Assembly (NCBI GenBank): GCA_030834835.1
Contig: JAUQXD010000329.1
Location: forward strand, 1 to 10,069
Direction of reading: 5' to 3'
DNA: 10,069 nt
Source: Thermoflexales bacterium
GTDB lineage: Bacteria; Chloroflexota; Anaerolineae; Fen-1058
How positions within the stretch are numbered: position 1 is the stretch's first letter; every line of letters starts with the position of its first letter. A model generated the notes under the pieces. It was not told where the DNA came from and ran no database searches. It saw nothing but the letters and a program-made list of their open reading frames with translations. Position numbers and translations under genes: made by a program. Below, piece by piece: positions 1-7,862 of the stretch.

Positions 1-605
1 GAACTATACGTGCCATAGAAGTTGACGTAGCCGCCGAACATATGTAGCAATCGCGCCAGCGGCCCGCTGCCTTTGTAGGTGCTGTCAACCCCGCCCGCAA
101 TCTGGCCGGAAGCATACTGATAGTAGAAGGCTTCATTGCCATATTGCTCTTTGATGCGCTTCATTTGGCCGGCGATGGTATCCAGCGCCTCTTCCCACGA
201 GATGCGCTCGAATTTGCCCTCGCCGCGCTTGCCCACGCGCTTCATCGGATACTTCAAGCGCTCGGCTGAATACACACGGCGGGTCTGCGAACGGCCGCGC
301 AAACAGGGAATCGCCCGCGGTCGATCGAGGCTGTCCTGCGGGTCTTGATCCGGCAGCAGGCGCAGCACCTGGCCGTCTTTGACTTCCGCATACAGGATGC
401 AGCGGCCGCCGCAGTTGTGATAGCAGCTTGTGGTGAGCAGCTGGCTGCCTTCCGCCGTGCCGGCTGCCTCCACCGCTTTCAAGCCGATGCTCACGCCACC
501 GGCCAATGCGGCTGCACCACCCACGGCGCCACTCCACTTGAGGAAGGTGCGCCGGGTCAACATCGTGTCAGTGATGGCTTTCGTGAGGAAAGGGGTGTCG
601 CTCAT
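1..605 (-). CDS. dmsA: Tat-exported DmsA-like molybdopterin oxidoreductase, N-terminal part (cut by window edge)
   Basis: I translated this frame by hand: 201 codons without a stop from the ATG at 605-603, open at the left edge, so only the N-terminus is present. Residues 1-50 form a twin-arginine signal: TRRTFLKW with arginines 18 and 19, then a hydrophobic Ala/Gly-rich stretch, so the enzyme should be folded with its cofactor and exported. Cys61, Cys65, Cys69 and Cys101 form the N-terminal [4Fe-4S] (FS0) site, spaced Cx3Cx3C as in DmsA. The last visible segment, FGGYVNFYGTYS, aligns with the DMSO reductase region that carries the serine ligand of molybdenum, making Ser201 the candidate ligand. 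The start is supported by AGGAGG at 614-619, 8 nt upstream. It is a paralogue of the 868-aa gene at 2420-5026; the signal peptides and first 130 residues align closely. Known family role: terminal reductase for S- or N-oxides. The true substrate cannot be read from sequence. Confidence 0.93.
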   Translation of the reverse strand, partial: MSDTPFLTKAITDTMLTRRTFLKWSGAVGGAAALAGGVSIGLKAVEAAGTAEGSQLLTTSCYHNCGGRCILYAEVKDGQVLRLLPDQDPQDSLDRPRAIPCLRGRSQTRRVYSAERLKYPMKRVGKRGEGKFERISWEEALDTIAGQMKRIKEQYGNEAFYYQYASGQIAGGVDSTYKGSGPLARLLHMFGGYVNFYGTYS

Positions 606-613
606 TGAGGTTT

Positions 614-619
614 CCTCCT
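614..619 (-). promoter_or_regulatory. Shine-Dalgarno site of the second dmsA-like gene
   Basis: AGGAGG on the minus strand, 8 nt before the ATG at 605. It follows the predicted pseudoknot arm by 8 nt, so folding of the leader could affect ribosome access. Confidence 0.8.
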
Positions 620-627
620 ATAGATGT

Positions 628-660
628 CTGTCGGGCAAGCGGTGGGCCGACAGTCCCACC
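628..660 (-). promoter_or_regulatory. Predicted H-type pseudoknot in the leader of the second dmsA-like gene
   Basis: Read on the minus strand, GGTGGG (646-641) pairs with CCCACC (660-655 region of the same leader, as complementary arms), and CTGTCGG (653-647) pairs with CCGACAG (634-628). The arms are interleaved in order stem1, stem2, stem1, stem2, with 6 and 7 base pairs, a 1-nt first loop, no nucleotide between stem 2 and the second stem 1 arm, and a 6-nt last loop (GCTTGC). Such short loops are sterically suited to an H-type pseudoknot. The structure ends 22 nt before the ATG and 8 nt before the ribosome binding site. If no pseudoknot forms, the same arms make two mutually exclusive hairpins, which could also act as a switch. 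The structure is inferred from complementarity only; the matching structure at 5049-5078 is the main support. Confidence 0.55.
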
Positions 661-722: not shown

Positions 723-728
723 AGGATA
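723..728 (-). promoter_or_regulatory. Putative -10 box of the second dmsA-like gene
   Basis: TATCCT on the minus strand, followed by GA, lies 18 nt downstream of the conserved 43-nt block. The equivalent box upstream of the other dmsA-like gene, TATGCT at 5115-5120, is at exactly the same distance. No good -35 hexamer is present at 16-18 nt spacing; the conserved block occupies that place, as expected for a promoter that needs an activator. A start site near 716 is inferred, giving a leader of about 110 nt. Confidence 0.45.
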
Positions 729-746
729 CGAGCATCCAGCGGACAA

Positions 747-789
747 TACATCCACCCGTCGAATAATCCTCTATCGCCCGATCGGGTGA
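747..789 (-). promoter_or_regulatory. Conserved upstream element with 16-bp palindrome, copy A (candidate response-regulator operator)
   Basis: On the minus strand this 43-nt block starts with TCACCCGATCGGGCGA, a palindrome with a perfect CCCGATCGGG core (774-789), then GAGGATTATTC, and ends in TGGATGTA. Aligned without gaps to 5139-5181, 33 of 43 positions are identical. It sits directly upstream of a TATCCT box. A two-fold symmetric site fits binding by a homodimer; the LuxR-type regulator encoded at 5256-5918 is the obvious candidate, which is inference from proximity. Confidence 0.6.
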
Positions 790-2419: not shown

Positions 2420-5026
2420 CTATGCCTCCTTGATCGCGATGCGCTGCGGCCAGGTGTAATCAGGCTTCAGCTGGATCGAGCCGACGTACTTCTCGATCTT
2501 GACGTTGCACGTGTTCCAGCCCTGATGCCCCTGCCCGTTCGGAATCGCGCCATTCAACGTGTTGGTCGCGCCCGCCTTGTCGATGCCTGACGCCTCGTCA
2601 ACTTCGGCCCAGGCCCCTTCGCCCAACATCACCACGCCGGGCAGCAAGCGCTCGGTCAGATACAAGGGGCGCAGCACCGTGCCGTGGCGGCTGGTCACCT
2701 GCACCGTATCGCCGACCTTCAGGCCAAGCGCCGCAGCGTCCATCGGATTCATCATGAACGACTGCGGGAACAGCTCGCGCAGCCATGGGACATTGTCGAA
2801 GATCGAGTGTGAGCGCCGTCGATAGTGGATCGTCACCAACTGGAACGGATACTCGCCTTTGACGCGTTTTTCCCAGTCGGCGAATGTATCTTCGTAGCCT
2901 TCCGTCGGCTTCACGTAAACCGGCAGCTGGCTGATCTCGGTGAAGCCCGATTTCTTCACGAAGTCGGCAATATCCTGGCAGAAAACCTCGAGCTTGCCGC
3001 TCTTCGACTTCAGCGGATTGGCCGCCGGGTCCTGGCGGAAAGCCGCGTGCGCGATGTAGCCCAGCTTGTCACCGGGTGAGCGCGGCACGACGTACACGCC
3101 CTGCTCTTTGAATTCCTGCAGCGTGATGCGGCCGGTTTGGGCTTTGCCTGTGACACCCATGTCGGCGATATCTTGCTCGGTGATGGTGAGCAGCGGCTCT
3201 TTCTCGGAGCCATCCGGCTTCATTACCCAGGCCCCGGCCAACCGATTGAAGGTCTGCTGCTCCAGGGACAGCGGCGCAATCAGGGCCGCATCCAGACCGA
3301 GGCGTTTGCCCAATTCGGCGGCGATCCACTCGTCATCCTTCGCCTCAAACAAGGGCCTGGTGATCTGGCGCGCCCAGATCAAGTGCTCGCGATTGCCGTG
3401 GAAGTAGCTGTAGCGTTCCCACTGCGTGGTAACCGGGAGGACGACATCTGAATACCTGGCGTTGGTGTTGAGCGTGAAGTTGGAAGTCAACACAAACTCC
3501 ACCGCACGATGCGCCGCGATGCCTTTAGTCATGCCGACTTTCTGATTCAGCGCGGAGCCGCCATCGTGGATGATCATCTGGATGTCGATGTCTTTCACGC
3601 TCTGGTAGCCGGCGGTGTACTTCTTGCTCAGAATCGCTTCCCAGATCTCGTTGTTGTTGATCGTAATGCTGACCGGCTTCGGATCCATCTCATCGGTCTT
3701 GAGGCCCGGCACACCTGCGCCGCCGCTGCCGATAATGGCTGGTCCGCCGTTCGCGGTGTAGTCCCAGCAACTGACGCCCGTCATCCGCCCGGGCTGCCCG
3801 ATGTGGCCCGTCATGGCGCCGAGGGTCATGAAGATTTGCGGCCACGAGTCGGTGTTGTTGGTGCGCGCCGGTGCCCAGGCAGTGAGCAGCGCCGCTCGCT
3901 TGGTGCGCGCAATCTCGCGCGCCAGCGATCGAATTTTGTTGGGTGTGACGCCGCAAATTTCCGACGCCCACTCGGGTGTCTTCGGCTGGCCGTCCAGCCC
4001 GCCCAGCACGTAATCTTTGAAGTTCTGTTTCGGATCCGCGCCTTCGGGCATATGCTCGGCATCGAAGCCCACCGTGCATCGATTGAGGAAATCCCAATCG
4101 ATCAGCGGGTCGTTGGCCGGATCATCTTCGGTGAGCAGCGTGTGAGCCATGCCCAGCGCCAGAGCGTGATCGGTGGCTGGCCTCACAGGCACCCACTCGT
4201 CGGCCAGGATCATGGCCGAATCGTTGTACAGCGGATCGATGAAGATGAACTTGGCGCCCGCGCGCTTGGCCTCCCGATAGAACGACATGGAATTGCCCTG
4301 CGCGCTCCACGCGGGATTGCCGCCCCAGATGACGATGAGTTGGCTATTGCGCAAGTCCAGACGATCATTGTGGCTGGTCAGATTCAGGCCGTCGCCCAGA
4401 CCTATCTTGGGGCCGGTGTAGAACCACGTGCCCCACGACGTGGTGCCCCAGGTGCGGACCGTGCCGCCAAACAGGGTCAATGGCCGCGACATGAAGCTGC
4501 CCAGTTCCATGATGCCCGTGTTGCCGTACTTGTCTTTGACGCGCTTTAATTCGCTGGCGACGATGTCCAAAGCCTCGTCCCAACTGATGCGCACCCACTC
4601 GTCCCGGCCGCGCAATTCCTTCTTGCCGCCGCCCGGCTCCCAGTTCTTGCGCTTCATCGGGTACTTCAGCCGATCCGCGCCGAAGACCTGATGCTGCTGC
4701 GAACGGCCGCGCGCGCACCCTCGGATTTGCGGATGATCGGGGGTGTCAGGATGCGTGTCGTCGGTCTTCACGCGCTGCACCACACCATCAACCACCTGGG
4801 CCTTGAGCACACACCGCTGGCCGCCGCAGTTGTGCCAGCAGGCGCCCGTAATCCACTCGCCTTCACCGGCGGCTGCCTGCGCGGCCTCCCCGGCTTTCTT
4901 CAAGCCAAAGGTCATGCCGCCGGCGAGTGCTACCGTGCCTCCGACCGCACTGCTCCACTTTAGGAAGGTGCGTCGCGACAGCACGGTATCGGTCAGAGCC
5001 TTCGTGAGAAGGTTGCCTTCACTCAT
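2420..5026 (-). CDS. dmsA: Tat-exported DmsA-like molybdopterin oxidoreductase, catalytic subunit
   Basis: This complete 868-aa protein is the catalytic subunit of a DMSO reductase family enzyme. Residues 1-52 form a Tat signal with SRRTFLKW (Arg18-Arg19) and a hydrophobic stretch ending near AAQAAA. Cys63, Cys67, Cys72 and Cys104 are the N-terminal [4Fe-4S] ligands, but the spacing is Cx3Cx4C: an extra Gln70 not present in the paralogue at 1-605 (Cx3Cx3C). FGGTVRTWGTTSWGTW aligns Ser197 with the serine that ligates molybdenum in DMSO reductases. IVIWGGNPAWS (231-241) and FIFIDPLYNDSA (260-271) belong to the cofactor-binding core; about 725-868 is the C-terminal molybdopterin-dinucleotide-binding domain (RRRSHSIFDNVPWLRELFP, QGHQGWNTCNVKIEKY). 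It is slightly longer than E. coli DmsA. AGGAGG at 5034-5039 lies 7 nt before the ATG. It heads a three-gene operon with dmsB and dmsC. S- or N-oxide reduction is likely, but the substrate is not settled by sequence. Confidence 0.95.
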   Translation of the reverse strand: MSEGNLLTKALTDTVLSRRTFLKWSSAVGGTVALAGGMTFGLKKAGEAAQAAAGEGEWITGACWHNCGGQRCVLKAQVVDGVVQRVKTDDTHPDTPDHPQIRGCARGRSQQHQVFGADRLKYPMKRKNWEPGGGKKELRGRDEWVRISWDEALDIVASELKRVKDKYGNTGIMELGSFMSRPLTLFGGTVRTWGTTSWGTWFYTGPKIGLGDGLNLTSHNDRLDLRNSQLIVIWGGNPAWSAQGNSMSFYREAKRAGAKFIFIDPLYNDSAMILADEWVPVRPATDHALALGMAHTLLTEDDPANDPLIDWDFLNRCTVGFDAEHMPEGADPKQNFKDYVLGGLDGQPKTPEWASEICGVTPNKIRSLAREIARTKRAALLTAWAPARTNNTDSWPQIFMTLGAMTGHIGQPGRMTGVSCWDYTANGGPAIIGSGGAGVPGLKTDEMDPKPVSITINNNEIWEAILSKKYTAGYQSVKDIDIQMIIHDGGSALNQKVGMTKGIAAHRAVEFVLTSNFTLNTNARYSDVVLPVTTQWERYSYFHGNREHLIWARQITRPLFEAKDDEWIAAELGKRLGLDAALIAPLSLEQQTFNRLAGAWVMKPDGSEKEPLLTITEQDIADMGVTGKAQTGRITLQEFKEQGVYVVPRSPGDKLGYIAHAAFRQDPAANPLKSKSGKLEVFCQDIADFVKKSGFTEISQLPVYVKPTEGYEDTFADWEKRVKGEYPFQLVTIHYRRRSHSIFDNVPWLRELFPQSFMMNPMDAAALGLKVGDTVQVTSRHGTVLRPLYLTERLLPGVVMLGEGAWAEVDEASGIDKAGATNTLNGAIPNGQGHQGWNTCNVKIEKYVGSIQLKPDYTWPQRIAIKEA

Positions 5027-5033
5027 GTGCGTT

Positions 5034-5039
5034 CCTCCT
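5034..5039 (-). promoter_or_regulatory. Shine-Dalgarno site of the first dmsA-like gene
   Basis: AGGAGG on the minus strand, 7 nt before the ATG at 5026 and 9 nt after the last arm of the predicted leader pseudoknot. The stretch from pseudoknot to ATG resembles that of the other copy (ATCT..AT.AGGAGGAA). Confidence 0.8.
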
Positions 5040-5048
5040 GATGAGATT

Positions 5049-5078
5049 CTGCTGATGTCATCGGCCAGCAGTTGCCGA
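5049..5078 (-). promoter_or_regulatory. Predicted H-type pseudoknot in the leader of the first dmsA-like gene
   Basis: On the minus strand TCGGC (5078-5074) pairs with GCCGA (5065-5061), and CTGCTG (5071-5066) pairs with CAGCAG (5054-5049). The arms are interleaved as in an H-type pseudoknot: 5-bp stem 1, 2-nt first loop (AA), 6-bp stem 2, no intervening nucleotide, 6-nt last loop (TGACAT). It ends 22 nt before the ATG, exactly as the structure at 628-660 does. The stem sequences differ from that copy, yet pairing is kept. Inferred from complementarity; no experiment or energy calculation was possible here. Confidence 0.55.
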
Positions 5079-5114: not shown

Positions 5115-5120
5115 AGCATA
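5115..5120 (-). promoter_or_regulatory. Putative -10 box of the dmsABC-type operon
   Basis: TATGCT on the minus strand followed by GA, 18 nt after the end of the conserved 43-nt block, aligned position for position with TATCCT at 723-728. No convincing -35 hexamer. A start site near 5108 and a leader of about 80 nt are inferred. Confidence 0.45.
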
Positions 5121-5138: not shown

Positions 5139-5181
5139 TACATCCATCCACAGAGTAATCCTCACTCACCCAACCGGGTGA
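5139..5181 (-). promoter_or_regulatory. Conserved upstream element with 16-bp palindrome, copy B (candidate response-regulator operator)
   Basis: On the minus strand the block starts with TCACCCGGTTGGGTGA, a palindrome with TCACCC/GGGTGA arms (5166-5181), then GAGGATTACTC, and ends in TGGATGGATGTA. It shares 33 of 43 positions with 747-789 without a gap. It lies in the 230-nt gap between the response-regulator gene and the dmsABC-type operon, just past the regulator operon's terminator. Confidence 0.6.
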
Positions 5182-5202: not shown

Positions 5203-5232
5203 AAAAAGCCGCTCGATCGTTGAGCGGCTTTT
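5203..5232 (-). terminator. Intrinsic terminator of the regulator operon
   Basis: A perfect 11-bp stem (AAAAGCCGCTC at 5204-5214 with GAGCGGCTTTT at 5222-5232) closes on a 7-nt loop. On the minus strand the stem ends in CTTTTTGTTGT, a U-rich tail. It starts 23 nt after the stop codon of the response regulator and isolates that operon from the following promoter. The reverse strand also ends in TTTT, but no gene reads towards it from that side. Confidence 0.9.
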
Positions 5233-5255: not shown

Positions 5256-5918
5256 CTAATTCAGCGATTGGGGTGGCAACAAACCCGATCGGACGGCGTA
5301 GGCCGCCGCCTGAGTTCGATTCTCCACTTGCAATTTATCGAGAATATTGCGCAGGTGGACTTTCACCGTATTAATCGTGATGTTGAGTTGCTGCGCGATG
5401 TGTGGATTGCTGCACCCCTGCGCGACCAGCCGCAACACATCGATCTCGCGCTCGGTCAGCGCCTGTTCGCCTGTCTCGGGCCGGACGGCATGTTGGGCTA
5501 CGGCCTTCAATAATCGGGCCGCCATCGTGCGCGTCATCGCCGCTTCACCGTGAGCGACGCCCGACAACAGTTCAAACAGTTCGACGGCGTCCAGACTTTT
5601 CAACAAGTAGCCAGCCGCGCCCAATCGCACTGCTTCATACAGATGGTCATCCAACTCCGAGGCCGTGAGCATGATGACGGCCACACTCGGCACACACGTC
5701 CGAATTTGCGCCGCCGCCTGCAGGCCGTCACCATCAGGCATGTGAATGTCCAGCAGGACCACGTCTGGCCGCAGGCTGAGCGAGAGCTGCACGGCTTCAC
5801 GCCCGGTCGCCGCTTCCCCGACGACTTCCACCAGATCCCGCCGTGTGCCCATCAAACCGATGAGGCCCTGCCGAAACAGGCGATGATCATCAGCCACCAA
5901 CACTTTCATTGGCAACAT
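5256..5918 (-). CDS. NarL/LuxR-family response regulator
   Basis: This 220-aa DNA-binding regulator is the expected partner of the adjacent kinase. The receiver domain spans about 4-122, with Asp10-Asp11 (acidic pocket), Asp57 in VVLLDIHMPDGDG as phosphorylation site, Thr85 and Lys107 as the conserved switch residues. About 152-216 is a LuxR-type helix-turn-helix, LTEREIDVLRLVAQGCSNPHIAQ followed by TINTVKVHLRNILDKL. Length and order match NarL-type regulators. The ATG at 5918 is preceded by AAAGGA at a suitable distance; Met4 is a possible alternative start without its own site. The gene begins 12 nt after the kinase stop and ends before a strong terminator. Its likely targets, by position, are the palindromes at 774-789 and 5166-5181 upstream of the two dmsA-like genes; this is inference. 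Confidence 0.96.
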   Translation of the reverse strand: MLPMKVLVADDHRLFRQGLIGLMGTRRDLVEVVGEAATGREAVQLSLSLRPDVVLLDIHMPDGDGLQAAAQIRTCVPSVAVIMLTASELDDHLYEAVRLGAAGYLLKSLDAVELFELLSGVAHGEAAMTRTMAARLLKAVAQHAVRPETGEQALTEREIDVLRLVAQGCSNPHIAQQLNITINTVKVHLRNILDKLQVENRTQAAAYAVRSGLLPPQSLN

Positions 5919-5930
5919 ACTGCATCCTTT

Positions 5931-7862
5931 CTATTGACCCGACCGTGCAACCGTCGGGATCCATAACTCAACTTGAGTCCCCACGCCCGGCTCCGAGTTG
6001 ACCGTCAACCCGCCGCCCACGCTTTCGGCTCGCTCGCGCATCGTCTGCAAGCCGAAGTGTCCCCGCAGCACCTGTCCATTGATGCCCACGCCATCGTCCG
6101 TGATCGACGTGGCGAAACACCCGCGTTGCAGCGCCAGCCGAACCTGCGCGTGGTGCGCGTGGGCGTGCTTGCGCACGTTGGTCAGTGCCTCTTGCACAAT
6201 GCGCACCATGTGCGCTTCCGCCAGCGGCGATAGATTCGCCTGCCCGCCGCACTCATCGATCAGCTGCGCGTCAATGCCGGTCTGCACGCTGAATTCCTCG
6301 ACGTATTGTTGCAGCGCCGGAATCAAGCCCACCTCGCCCGCTAGGGTCGTGCGCAGGCTCAGAATGTTCTCGCGCACATCGGCCTGAGCGTCTTTGATGC
6401 GCGCGCGCGCCTGACACAACTCGGCCAACGCTCGTTCGCAATTGTTTTGCCGGACATACGCTTCCAGCGTCTGTAACTGCAAACTCAAATAGCCCAACAC
6501 TTGCGCCAGACCGTCGTGCATCTCGCGGGCGATGCGGGTGCGTTCTTCTTTCACCGCCAGCGATTGCAGCTGCGCCGTCATTGAGGCGTGTTCCAGCGCA
6601 ATCACCGCCTGATCGGCCAGCCGCTCCAGCCCGATCACATCGGTCGCGGTAAAGGGCTGCGCCTCCGTCCGCGATACCCATATTCCACCCACCGCCTGCG
6701 CCTCCAGACGCAACGGCACGATCAACGCCGCGCGAATCTCGTGCTGAAGCACAACCGATCCCCAGGCGCGCGGCGATTCACCTTCGTCGTCGGGATACCG
6801 GTACGCCCGATCGGTGCGGAGTGCATCCAGGACGATTTCATTTTTGGAATGCCTGGACTCGATCGGATGCAGCCCCTCAGCCGTCGCGTAGTTCTTAAGC
6901 ATCAGGTATTGGCGGTTTTCATCCCACAGGCCCAGCACCGAGAGATCAGTTCGCAACAGACGCCGCGCCAGATCGACAATCGCCGCCAGGATGTCGTCAG
7001 TCGCTTCCATATCCGCGATGCGGCGGCCGACGCCCACCAGCCCTTCGGTCCAACTTTCAGCCGCCCAGCGGGCTGCCGATTGCGCTTGCAGCGTAGCCTG
7101 TTGGGCCTGTTCGCGCTGCGTCTGTAATTCAGCGATATGCTGCTTCCGCTCAGCCTCGAATACTCCCAGGGCGCGCATCACAAAGTACATGACCGCCAGC
7201 CCCGACAACATCCGCCAGATTTGAACCGGCACCCGGGTCACGGCCAGGGCGTTGTCGTAGTTCAGCCAGGGCGCCAGACCATAGGCCGCCGTGGGCACAA
7301 TGAGTCCAGCCACGAACGCGTTAAAAGAGAACGTGAGGGCCGCCCCCAACAACAAGTGCCGCGCCGGACCATACTTGCCATTCGCCAGTAGATTCCATTG
7401 CCGCACAAAGCCAACCGCGGCCAACACATTGCCGGGAAAATACAGCAGATAACGTGACCACACGTCGGCGGCCAATTCGAGCGGCGGTTCCATCACCGCC
7501 ACGATCAGCGCGTAGGCCAGCAGCAGCCCGATTGGCGCAATAAACACCACCGGCAGCAGCGACAACCAGGCCGGCAGTGGGCCGGCGTCATTCACTAAGC
7601 CGATCCCAAATCGAACCAGCAGCAGCGCCGACACCGGCAGCATCACCGTGCGCACCACCGTCAACGCTTCGTGCACCGGGCCGGTGGGCACCGCCAGCAA
7701 AAACAGATCGCACCACTCGACCGCGGCGTGCGTCAGCCCGAAGGCAGCCAGCCATCGCAGTTGGCGACCCAGCGGCAGCTCACTGGCGTGGCGCGTCTCC
7801 AGCAGCGCCGCCAACCCCAGACTAAAGAAAGCCAGCCCGTAGACAAAGTAAACGGCGATCAT
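5931..7862 (-). CDS. Seven-helix membrane sensor histidine kinase with GAF domain (NarX/DegS type)
   Basis: This 643-aa kinase should sense a signal at or in the membrane and phosphorylate the regulator encoded next to it. Seven hydrophobic segments lie at about 1-21, 36-57, 70-90, 98-124, 137-155, 168-190 and 211-232, followed by a Gln/Glu-rich probable coiled coil (236-268), a GAF domain (about 281-425), a HisKA_3 dimerisation domain with the phospho-acceptor His449 in REMHDG, and an HATPase_c domain (about 545-637) with Asn562 in the N box, DDGVG (589-593) and GHFGLQTMRER (601-611). No large periplasmic sensor loop of the NarX type is visible. The GAF domain has no cysteine, so it does not look like an oxygen-sensing Fe-S sensor. 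Its start overlaps the chaperone stop by 4 nt (ATGA), with GGTGA about 8 nt upstream. I do not recognise the seven-helix domain as a named family. Confidence 0.94.
   Translation of the reverse strand: MIAVYFVYGLAFFSLGLAALLETRHASELPLGRQLRWLAAFGLTHAAVEWCDLFLLAVPTGPVHEALTVVRTVMLPVSALLLVRFGIGLVNDAGPLPAWLSLLPVVFIAPIGLLLAYALIVAVMEPPLELAADVWSRYLLYFPGNVLAAVGFVRQWNLLANGKYGPARHLLLGAALTFSFNAFVAGLIVPTAAYGLAPWLNYDNALAVTRVPVQIWRMLSGLAVMYFVMRALGVFEAERKQHIAELQTQREQAQQATLQAQSAARWAAESWTEGLVGVGRRIADMEATDDILAAIVDLARRLLRTDLSVLGLWDENRQYLMLKNYATAEGLHPIESRHSKNEIVLDALRTDRAYRYPDDEGESPRAWGSVVLQHEIRAALIVPLRLEAQAVGGIWVSRTEAQPFTATDVIGLERLADQAVIALEHASMTAQLQSLAVKEERTRIAREMHDGLAQVLGYLSLQLQTLEAYVRQNNCERALAELCQARARIKDAQADVRENILSLRTTLAGEVGLIPALQQYVEEFSVQTGIDAQLIDECGGQANLSPLAEAHMVRIVQEALTNVRKHAHAHHAQVRLALQRGCFATSITDDGVGINGQVLRGHFGLQTMRERAESVGGGLTVNSEPGVGTQVELWIPTVARSGQ

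What the first reader, a model, noticed from the sequence alone, without database searches (positions are those of the whole stretch)
5049..5078. Second leader keeps the same pseudoknot layout with different stem sequences
The leader of the other dmsA-like gene has TCGGC / GCCGA and CTGCTG / CAGCAG in the same interleaved order, loops of 2, 0 and 6 nt, and ends exactly 22 nt before the ATG, as at 628-660. The stems share little sequence, so pairing has been kept while sequence changed. Two paralogous genes with matching structure and spacing make chance less likely and suggest a so far unnamed cis-regulatory RNA linked to DmsA-type reductases.
Basis: partly seen in the sequence, partly recalled or inferred. 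Interest (0 to 1): 0.75.

Follow-up and report, generated by a model that had tools for sequence, protein, structure and literature searches.

The report
Twin RNA knots before two reductase genes
Two related respiratory-enzyme genes in one bacterial draft genome each carry, just before the ribosome-binding site, a small knotted RNA fold with the same shape but different letters; the pair is very unlikely to be chance, but most relatives examined lack it, so it looks like a local control element and not a widespread family.

Summary
On the minus strand, 5078-5049 reads TCGGC-AA-CTGCTG-GCCGA-TGACAT-CAGCAG and ends 22 nt before the dmsA ATG (5026); at 660-628 the second gene has GGTGGG-A-CTGTCGG-CCCACC-GCTTGC-CCGACAG, also 22 nt before its ATG (605). 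Such tight H-type knots arose in 14 and 15 of 20,000 shuffles of the two leaders, and in 1 of 149 other SD-led leaders sampled in this genome, not at this distance. The twin knots are not chance.

The wider claim, an RNA class linked to DmsA-type reductases, is only weakly supported. Of 45 distinct leaders (the window's two included), 25 share the window's operator. Among these, tight knots occur only in the two window leaders and L051, all ending 22-24 nt before the start codon. L013 has a longer-loop version; L079's candidate is not kept in same-genus L174. What is widely conserved is DNA: a palindrome (TCACCC-N4-GGGTGA) with a -10-like box 61 nt on, usually beside a NarL-type regulator gene. 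No Rfam family matches. Best reading: a lineage-restricted leader pseudoknot next to the ribosome-binding site that tunes dmsA translation under a two-component promoter.

The parts
5049..5078 (-). H-type pseudoknot in the dmsA leader: S1 5078-5074/5065-5061, L1 5073-5072, S2 5071-5066/5054-5049, L3 5060-5055
   Evidence: direct reading; chance rate; energy estimate
628..660 (-). H-type pseudoknot in the second dmsA-like gene's leader: S1 660-655/646-641, L1 654, S2 653-647/634-628, L3 640-635
   Evidence: direct reading; chance rate; energy estimate
5027..5048 (-). 22-nt linker with Shine-Dalgarno AGGAGG (5034-5039) between knot and ATG
   Evidence: direct reading
606..627 (-). 22-nt linker with Shine-Dalgarno AGGAGG (614-619) between knot and ATG
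   Evidence: direct reading
5166..5181 (-). palindromic operator TCACCC-GGTT-GGGTGA, probable response-regulator site
   Evidence: recurs upstream of homologues; 2 of the 3 places of TCACCCN4GGGYGA in the own genome lie in this window; binding not tested
774..789 (-). operator TCACCC-GATC-GGGCGA of the second dmsA-like gene
5115..5120 (-). -10-like hexamer TATGCT, starting 61 nt after the operator start
723..728 (-). -10-like hexamer TATCCT, starting 61 nt after the operator start
   Evidence: role inferred
2420..5026 (-). DmsA-like Tat-exported molybdopterin oxidoreductase (868 aa)
   Evidence: TIGR02166 495.1 bits, below its 777.7 cut-off
1..605 (-). second DmsA-like gene, start only (runs off the contig)
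   Evidence: 57% identity, query residues 1-172, to the first; TIGR02166 best hit
5256..5918 (-). NarL-type response regulator, immediately upstream of the operator
   Evidence: NF007935 168.8 bits, below its cut-off of 250; synteny
5931..7862 (-). NarX/NarQ-type sensor histidine kinase
   Evidence: NF008184 134 bits, below its cut-off of 553; synteny

Best explanation
Each leader carries a classical H-type RNA pseudoknot whose 3' edge lies 8-9 nt upstream of the Shine-Dalgarno sequence, that is, near the upstream edge of the 30S footprint. The promoter, probably driven by the neighbouring NarL-type response regulator through the palindromic operator, makes a leader of roughly 80-110 nt; the knot then folds and modulates how well ribosomes start on the dmsA-type gene. 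Most likely it keeps the ribosome-binding site out of competing structure: in the dmsA leader, stem 1 uses two bases of a CCUC (5080-5077) that can otherwise pair with the GAGG of the Shine-Dalgarno, so folding of the knot would free the site. The element is lineage-restricted; related operons have other leader structures in its place. Shown: sequence, geometry, spacing, non-randomness, recurring operator and synteny. Inferred: transcription start, folding in the cell, effect on translation. Whether a ligand or protein binds it is unknown.
For: Exact coordinates. Rare in shuffles and in real leaders of the same genome. All tight knots of at least 9 bp found in 25 operator leaders (last 130 nt) end at 22-24 nt, in WIN1, WIN2 and L051; the background of 1.7e-4 per position predicts about 0.012 hits at 22-24 nt in the 23 other leaders, against 1 seen. 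Loop lengths fit the usual steric limits of H-type knots (recalled). Rough energies: knot -22.5 to -25.1 kcal/mol against -11.7 for the best nested fold of the same 33 nt (leader 1), -16.5 to -19.1 against -7.5 for the 30 nt of leader 2. The nested competitor of leader 2 with flanks (65 nt, -13.5) pairs CCUC with the Shine-Dalgarno. The stems share little sequence although both promoters share the operator, which fits RNA pairing better than a common protein site.
Against: 20 of 25 operator leaders have no comparable knot, among them the most syntenic relative L127/L200 and L047, 73% identical in protein. Without the two window leaders, the operator group as a whole is not significant (Fisher p 0.55). 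In the group without operator 2 of 20 leaders also reach p below 0.01 when longer third loops are allowed, so L013 is weak; L079's stem 2 has a mismatch in same-genus L174 and its stem 1 is explained by a nested hairpin. Leader 1 has a nested competitor of nearly equal estimated energy (-21.5 for 66 nt). The CCUC/Shine-Dalgarno competition of leader 2 is not present in the same form in leader 1. Knot energies are stack sums with an assumed penalty of 7-9.6 kcal/mol.
Confidence: 0.5

Rival explanations
1. A genuine but non-regulatory RNA fold: a structural element that only protects the transcript or keeps the ribosome-binding site open, with any stable fold serving equally well. Relatives then fill the same place with other folds.
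For: Homologue leaders hold different structures, seen by reading: terminator-like hairpins in L054, L127, L199, L210, a nested hairpin in L079/L174 with one compensatory C-G to T-A change, a long nested stem in L197.
Against: A generic need for any fold does not predict the same knot topology and the same 22-nt spacing twice in one genome.
Confidence: 0.25
2. The knots are part of an attenuation-type leader switch, in which the knot competes with another fold; terminators in relatives are the other form of the same control.
For: L054, L127, L199 and L210 carry a GC-rich hairpin followed by a T-run between promoter and dmsA (by reading); leader 1 has two mutually exclusive folds of similar estimated energy.
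Against: No T-run follows either window knot, and I see no terminator between knot and ATG (by reading; no terminator scan was run).
Confidence: 0.15
3. The interleaved repeats are DNA sites for a protein (two overlapping inverted repeats) and not an RNA fold.
For: Inverted repeats of 5-7 bp are typical of dimeric protein sites, and the genes sit beside a response regulator.
Against: The two leaders would be expected to share the site, but the stems share little beyond the outer CTG...CAG of S2; repeat spacing differs; the shared operator lies elsewhere, upstream of the -10-like box.
Confidence: 0.05
4. Chance co-occurrence picked out by the reader.
For: The feature was chosen after seeing the sequence, and 42 of 45 distinct leaders lack a tight knot ending at 22-24 nt.
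Against: Rates of about 7e-4 per leader in shuffles and 1 of 149 in real leaders of the same genome, with identical spacing on top.
Confidence: 0.05

Closest known systems
preQ1 class I riboswitches (H-type pseudoknots in 5' leaders)
   Same: small H-type knot in a 5' leader close to a ribosome-binding site
   Different: in the translational types described in the passages of PMC11625349 that I saw, Shine-Dalgarno bases take part in or are buried in the knot; here the Shine-Dalgarno lies 8-9 nt outside; no Rfam match; the downstream genes are respiratory molybdoenzymes
Moco riboswitch candidate (molybdenum cofactor RNA; recalled, seen only as a cited title in PMC2864571)
   Same: a leader RNA upstream of genes tied to molybdenum cofactor
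   Different: no Rfam hit at any threshold used; the present element is 30-33 nt with two stems only
NarL/NarP-regulated anaerobic respiratory promoters
   Same: NarX/NarQ-type kinase and NarL-type regulator next to a palindromic site and a molybdoenzyme operon
   Different: TCACCC-N4-GGGTGA differs from the NarL heptamers TACYYMT in 7-2-7 array (recalled); regulator and kinase score below the equivalog cut-offs

Membership tests
H-type RNA pseudoknot (fold class) | two interleaved Watson-Crick stems with short connecting loops | tested here: met
   for both leaders; by sequence and rough energy only, no probing
   the 2 window leaders plus L051 (tight) and L013 (long L3) out of 25 operator leaders; 20 of 25 lack a comparable knot; L079 not kept in L174
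Moco riboswitch | match to its Rfam covariance model | tested here: not met
   no hit at gathering score over the window or at E up to 10 in the two leader regions
preQ1 riboswitches | match to the Rfam preQ1 models | tested here: not met
preQ1 riboswitches | Shine-Dalgarno inside the knot (translational types) | tested here: not met
   8 and 9 nt lie between the knot's last base and AGGAGG
DMSO reductase subunit A (TIGR02166) | score above curated cut-off | tested here: not met
   495.1 bits against 777.7; hence DmsA-like; the partner DmsB passes TIGR02951 (233.6 against 214.1)

The most novel reading that the evidence does not exclude
A new leader RNA of respiratory molybdoenzyme operons in Chloroflexota: a 30-33 nt H-type knot held at a fixed 22-24 nt from the start codon by stem pairing, with hardly any conserved sequence, which works as a translational switch or standby structure downstream of a two-component-controlled promoter, and which has replaced, or been replaced by, transcription attenuators in sister lineages.
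Probability: 0.25. Interest if true: 0.65.

Novelty: new member of a known kind. Interest (0 to 1): 0.42.

Why it matters
If the knots act on translation, DmsA-type respiration in this Chloroflexi lineage has a second layer of control in the leader RNA beneath a two-component promoter, and the leaders of the operon family show turnover of RNA structure type (knot, hairpin, terminator-like) between lineages. The recurring operator and -10 spacing also give a directly usable marker for the regulon of the adjacent kinase/regulator pair across Anaerolineae.

Tried and rejected
Knot conserved in DmsA homologues at large: leaders of 77 of the 80 loci plus the window's two were scanned, later 34 and then 45 distinct leaders, each count including the window's two; not found in general. 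One search guessed start codons from tblastn match starts; searches used a twin-arginine pattern ([STN]RR.F[LMV]KW), which drops homologues without that exact motif (many Firmicutes among them).

Long-loop knots (L3 up to 26-35 nt) as extra members: L079 and L013 looked promising, but the group without the operator also shows such hits (L075, L211, L044), and L174, same genus as L079, has a mismatch in stem 2 while its hairpin CGAGCC-TGT-GGCTCG becomes TGAGCC-TTT-GGCTCA. I count L079 as not supporting and L013 as weak. Fisher combination over the 25 operator leaders gives p 0.029 with the window and 0.55 without; over the 20 others 0.063.

A leader peptide overlapping the dmsA start in the f27 lineage: frames are open in L079, L174, L089, L095 and in the window's dmsA leader, but L079 against L174 shows 4 synonymous and 9 non-synonymous codon changes and no codon-position bias (5, 6, 7), so protein-level constraint is not supported.

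The window's leader DNA in 396 class genomes: 19 other genomes gave matches of 20-41 nt, all in the knot-to-start half of the query; re-examined, all 19 lie in open frames of 145-1007 codons and none holds a knot, so they are chance matches.

Literature: five searches of an open-licence library. Of the listed papers (1 of 1, 12 of 18, 2 of 2, 12 of 178, 4 of 4) none bears, by title and start of abstract, on a pseudoknot in a dmsA leader or on this operator in Anaerolineae. I saw passages of PMC2864571, PMC11625349 and PMC13245402; the rest as listings only.

Full report
What is there. The window is contig C1293 of a 6.48 Mb draft genome in 1452 contigs (90.7% complete, 7% contaminated), probably metagenome-assembled (inferred). 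The nearest named homologues of its dmsA are Chloroflexi/Anaerolineae (up to 73% identity). The genes considered lie on the minus strand: a DmsA-like C-terminal part, an FeS protein, a TorD-type chaperone (below cut-off), a NarX/Q-type histidine kinase, a NarL-type response regulator, dmsA, dmsB, a membrane subunit that I call NrfD-like by position and look (865-1800; no NCBIfam hit), and the start of a second dmsA-like gene.

The dmsA leader has TCGGC-AA-CTGCTG-GCCGA-TGACAT-CAGCAG at 5078-5049; the second leader has GGTGGG-A-CTGTCGG-CCCACC-GCTTGC-CCGACAG at 660-628. Each ends 22 nt before its ATG, with AGGAGG between.

Chance. In 4000 dinucleotide shuffles per leader, a Watson-Crick-only knot with stem 1 of at least 5, stem 2 of at least 6 and loops 1-3, 0 and 4-8 arose 0 times (leader 1) and once (leader 2). 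With both stems at least 5 and total at least 11, 14 and 15 of 20,000 shuffles had one anywhere in 150 nt; 1 of 20,000 reached leader 1's 13 bp. In 1.78 million strand-positions of the loci then held (overlapping and duplicate loci included) there were 36 distinct knots of this class. In 43 of 1452 contigs of the own genome (196,123 bp) there were 13, three of them in the window; of 149 other SD-led ORF leaders one had such a knot, 40 nt from the start. The twin knots are real features and not a reading accident, although the choice of feature was post hoc.

Promoter. The two leaders share a 44-bp block at 77% identity. It holds the palindrome TCACCC-N4-GGGTGA and a GGATTNYTC-N7-GGATG block; a TATNNT hexamer follows, starting 61 nt from the operator start. 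TCACCCN4GGGYGA has only 3 distinct places in the own genome, 2 of them here. Across 396 class genomes, ATCACCCN4GGGTGA occurs in 116, against 10 genomes, by my count of the table, for the reversed control. A homologue of the window's response regulator (60-71% identity) lies directly upstream of the operator-bearing dmsA leader, or in L058 of the gene before it, in L013, L014, L045, L047, L051, L058, L078, L081, L092, L127 and L146; it is not in the stretch held for L052, L054, L079, L083, L089 and L095 (some of these short), and lies 3.7 kb away in the longer L079-type stretch L206. I infer that the regulator binds this site; no binding was tested.

Is the knot conserved? I collected 45 distinct leaders of dmsA-type genes with a twin-arginine start, the window's two included: 25 with the operator (at least 11 of 12 matches) and 20 without (two of these with 10 of 12). 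Tight knots of at least 9 bp (loops 1-3, 0, 4-8) within 130 nt of the start occurred only in WIN1, WIN2 and L051 among the 25, all ending at 22-24 nt, and in L044 at 28-29 nt among the 20. The real-sequence rate for this class, 1.7e-4 per position (200 in 1,178,440; a chosen subset of loci that includes a copy of the window's knot), predicts 0.012 for positions 22-24 in the 23 non-window operator leaders, so L051 is a modest independent hit. Allowing loop 3 up to 26 nt, one G-U per stem and at least 11 bp adds L013 (23 nt) and L079 (22 nt), but also L045 (39), L201 (44) and L210 (3-4, 75) and, without operator, L211 (22) and L075 (26-28). L079 is undermined by its same-genus relative L174. Per-leader shuffle tests give p of at most 0.01 for 5 of 25 operator leaders and 2 of 20 others; without the two window leaders the operator group is not significant by Fisher's method (p 0.55). 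G118, whose neighbourhood matches the window's best (FeS, TorD, kinase, regulator, DmsA in the same order; L200), has no knot in its leader (L127).

What sits there instead. By reading, L054, L127, L199 and L210 have a GC-rich hairpin followed by a T-run; L079 and L174 a 6-bp hairpin; L197 (first gene a lipoprotein-like protein) a long nested stem. Leaders of this operon family are often structured, but not by one conserved fold.

Fold energies. Stack sums with coaxial stacking and a penalty of 7-9.6 give -22.5 to -25.1 kcal/mol for leader 1 and -16.5 to -19.1 for leader 2, against -11.7 and -7.5 for the nested minimum of the same stretches. With flanks, nested competitors reach -21.5 (66 nt) and -13.5 (65 nt). 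In leader 2 that competitor pairs CCUC (5080-5077) with the Shine-Dalgarno; stem 1 of the knot starts inside this CCUC, so the two exclude each other. This is the basis of the proposed mechanism, in which knot formation leaves the ribosome-binding site free. Leader 1 does not show the same arrangement.

Known families. No Rfam match at gathering scores over the window, and only chance-level matches at E up to 10 in both leader regions (NsiR4 0.28, SNORD83 7.3, STnc320 9.8; sraA 4.2). Five literature searches listed nothing on such a leader (capped lists in 47 and 57); three papers were seen in passages.

Verdict. Observation confirmed; interpretation partly supported: a genuine twin pseudoknot in one genome, suggestive traces in one or two relatives, and a recurring operator that is the better-supported finding. 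Function on translation is my best inference at about 0.5.

Noticed in passing
window 5166-5181 and 774-789, minus strand; loci listed: Recurring promoter of dmsA-type operons in Anaerolineae: TCACCC-N4-GGGTGA, then GGATTNYTC-N7-GGATG, then TATNNT starting 61 nt from the operator start in 17 of 24 listed cases; probable regulon marker of the adjacent NarL-type regulator.
   Followed up: partly
L014, L047, L083, L092, L127, L199, L201 (7 of 25 or more operator leaders tested): An inverted repeat of 9-12 bp with differing, complementary sequences links the -10 region (TCCTGATAG...) to a CAGGA stretch 6-44 nt further on. If the -10 assignment is right the 5' arm is not in the RNA, so its role is unexplained. 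The window leaders lack it.
   Followed up: partly
L054, L127, L199, L210 leaders: Terminator-like hairpins with T-runs between promoter and dmsA, seen by reading, suggesting transcription attenuation in that family.
   Followed up: no
L079 and L174 leaders: Hairpin CGAGCC-TGT-GGCTCG becomes TGAGCC-TTT-GGCTCA in a same-genus relative: one compensatory pair change in a nested leader hairpin.
   Followed up: partly
G118 contig C32 and G154 contig C12: Four (G118) and three (G154) dmsA-type paralogues on one contig; among the G118 leaders read, two have the operator (L127, L199) and two do not (L132, L211).
   Followed up: no
window about 5203-5232 and 811-838: Terminator-like inverted repeats just upstream of each operator, probably ending the preceding transcription unit (by reading).
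   Followed up: no
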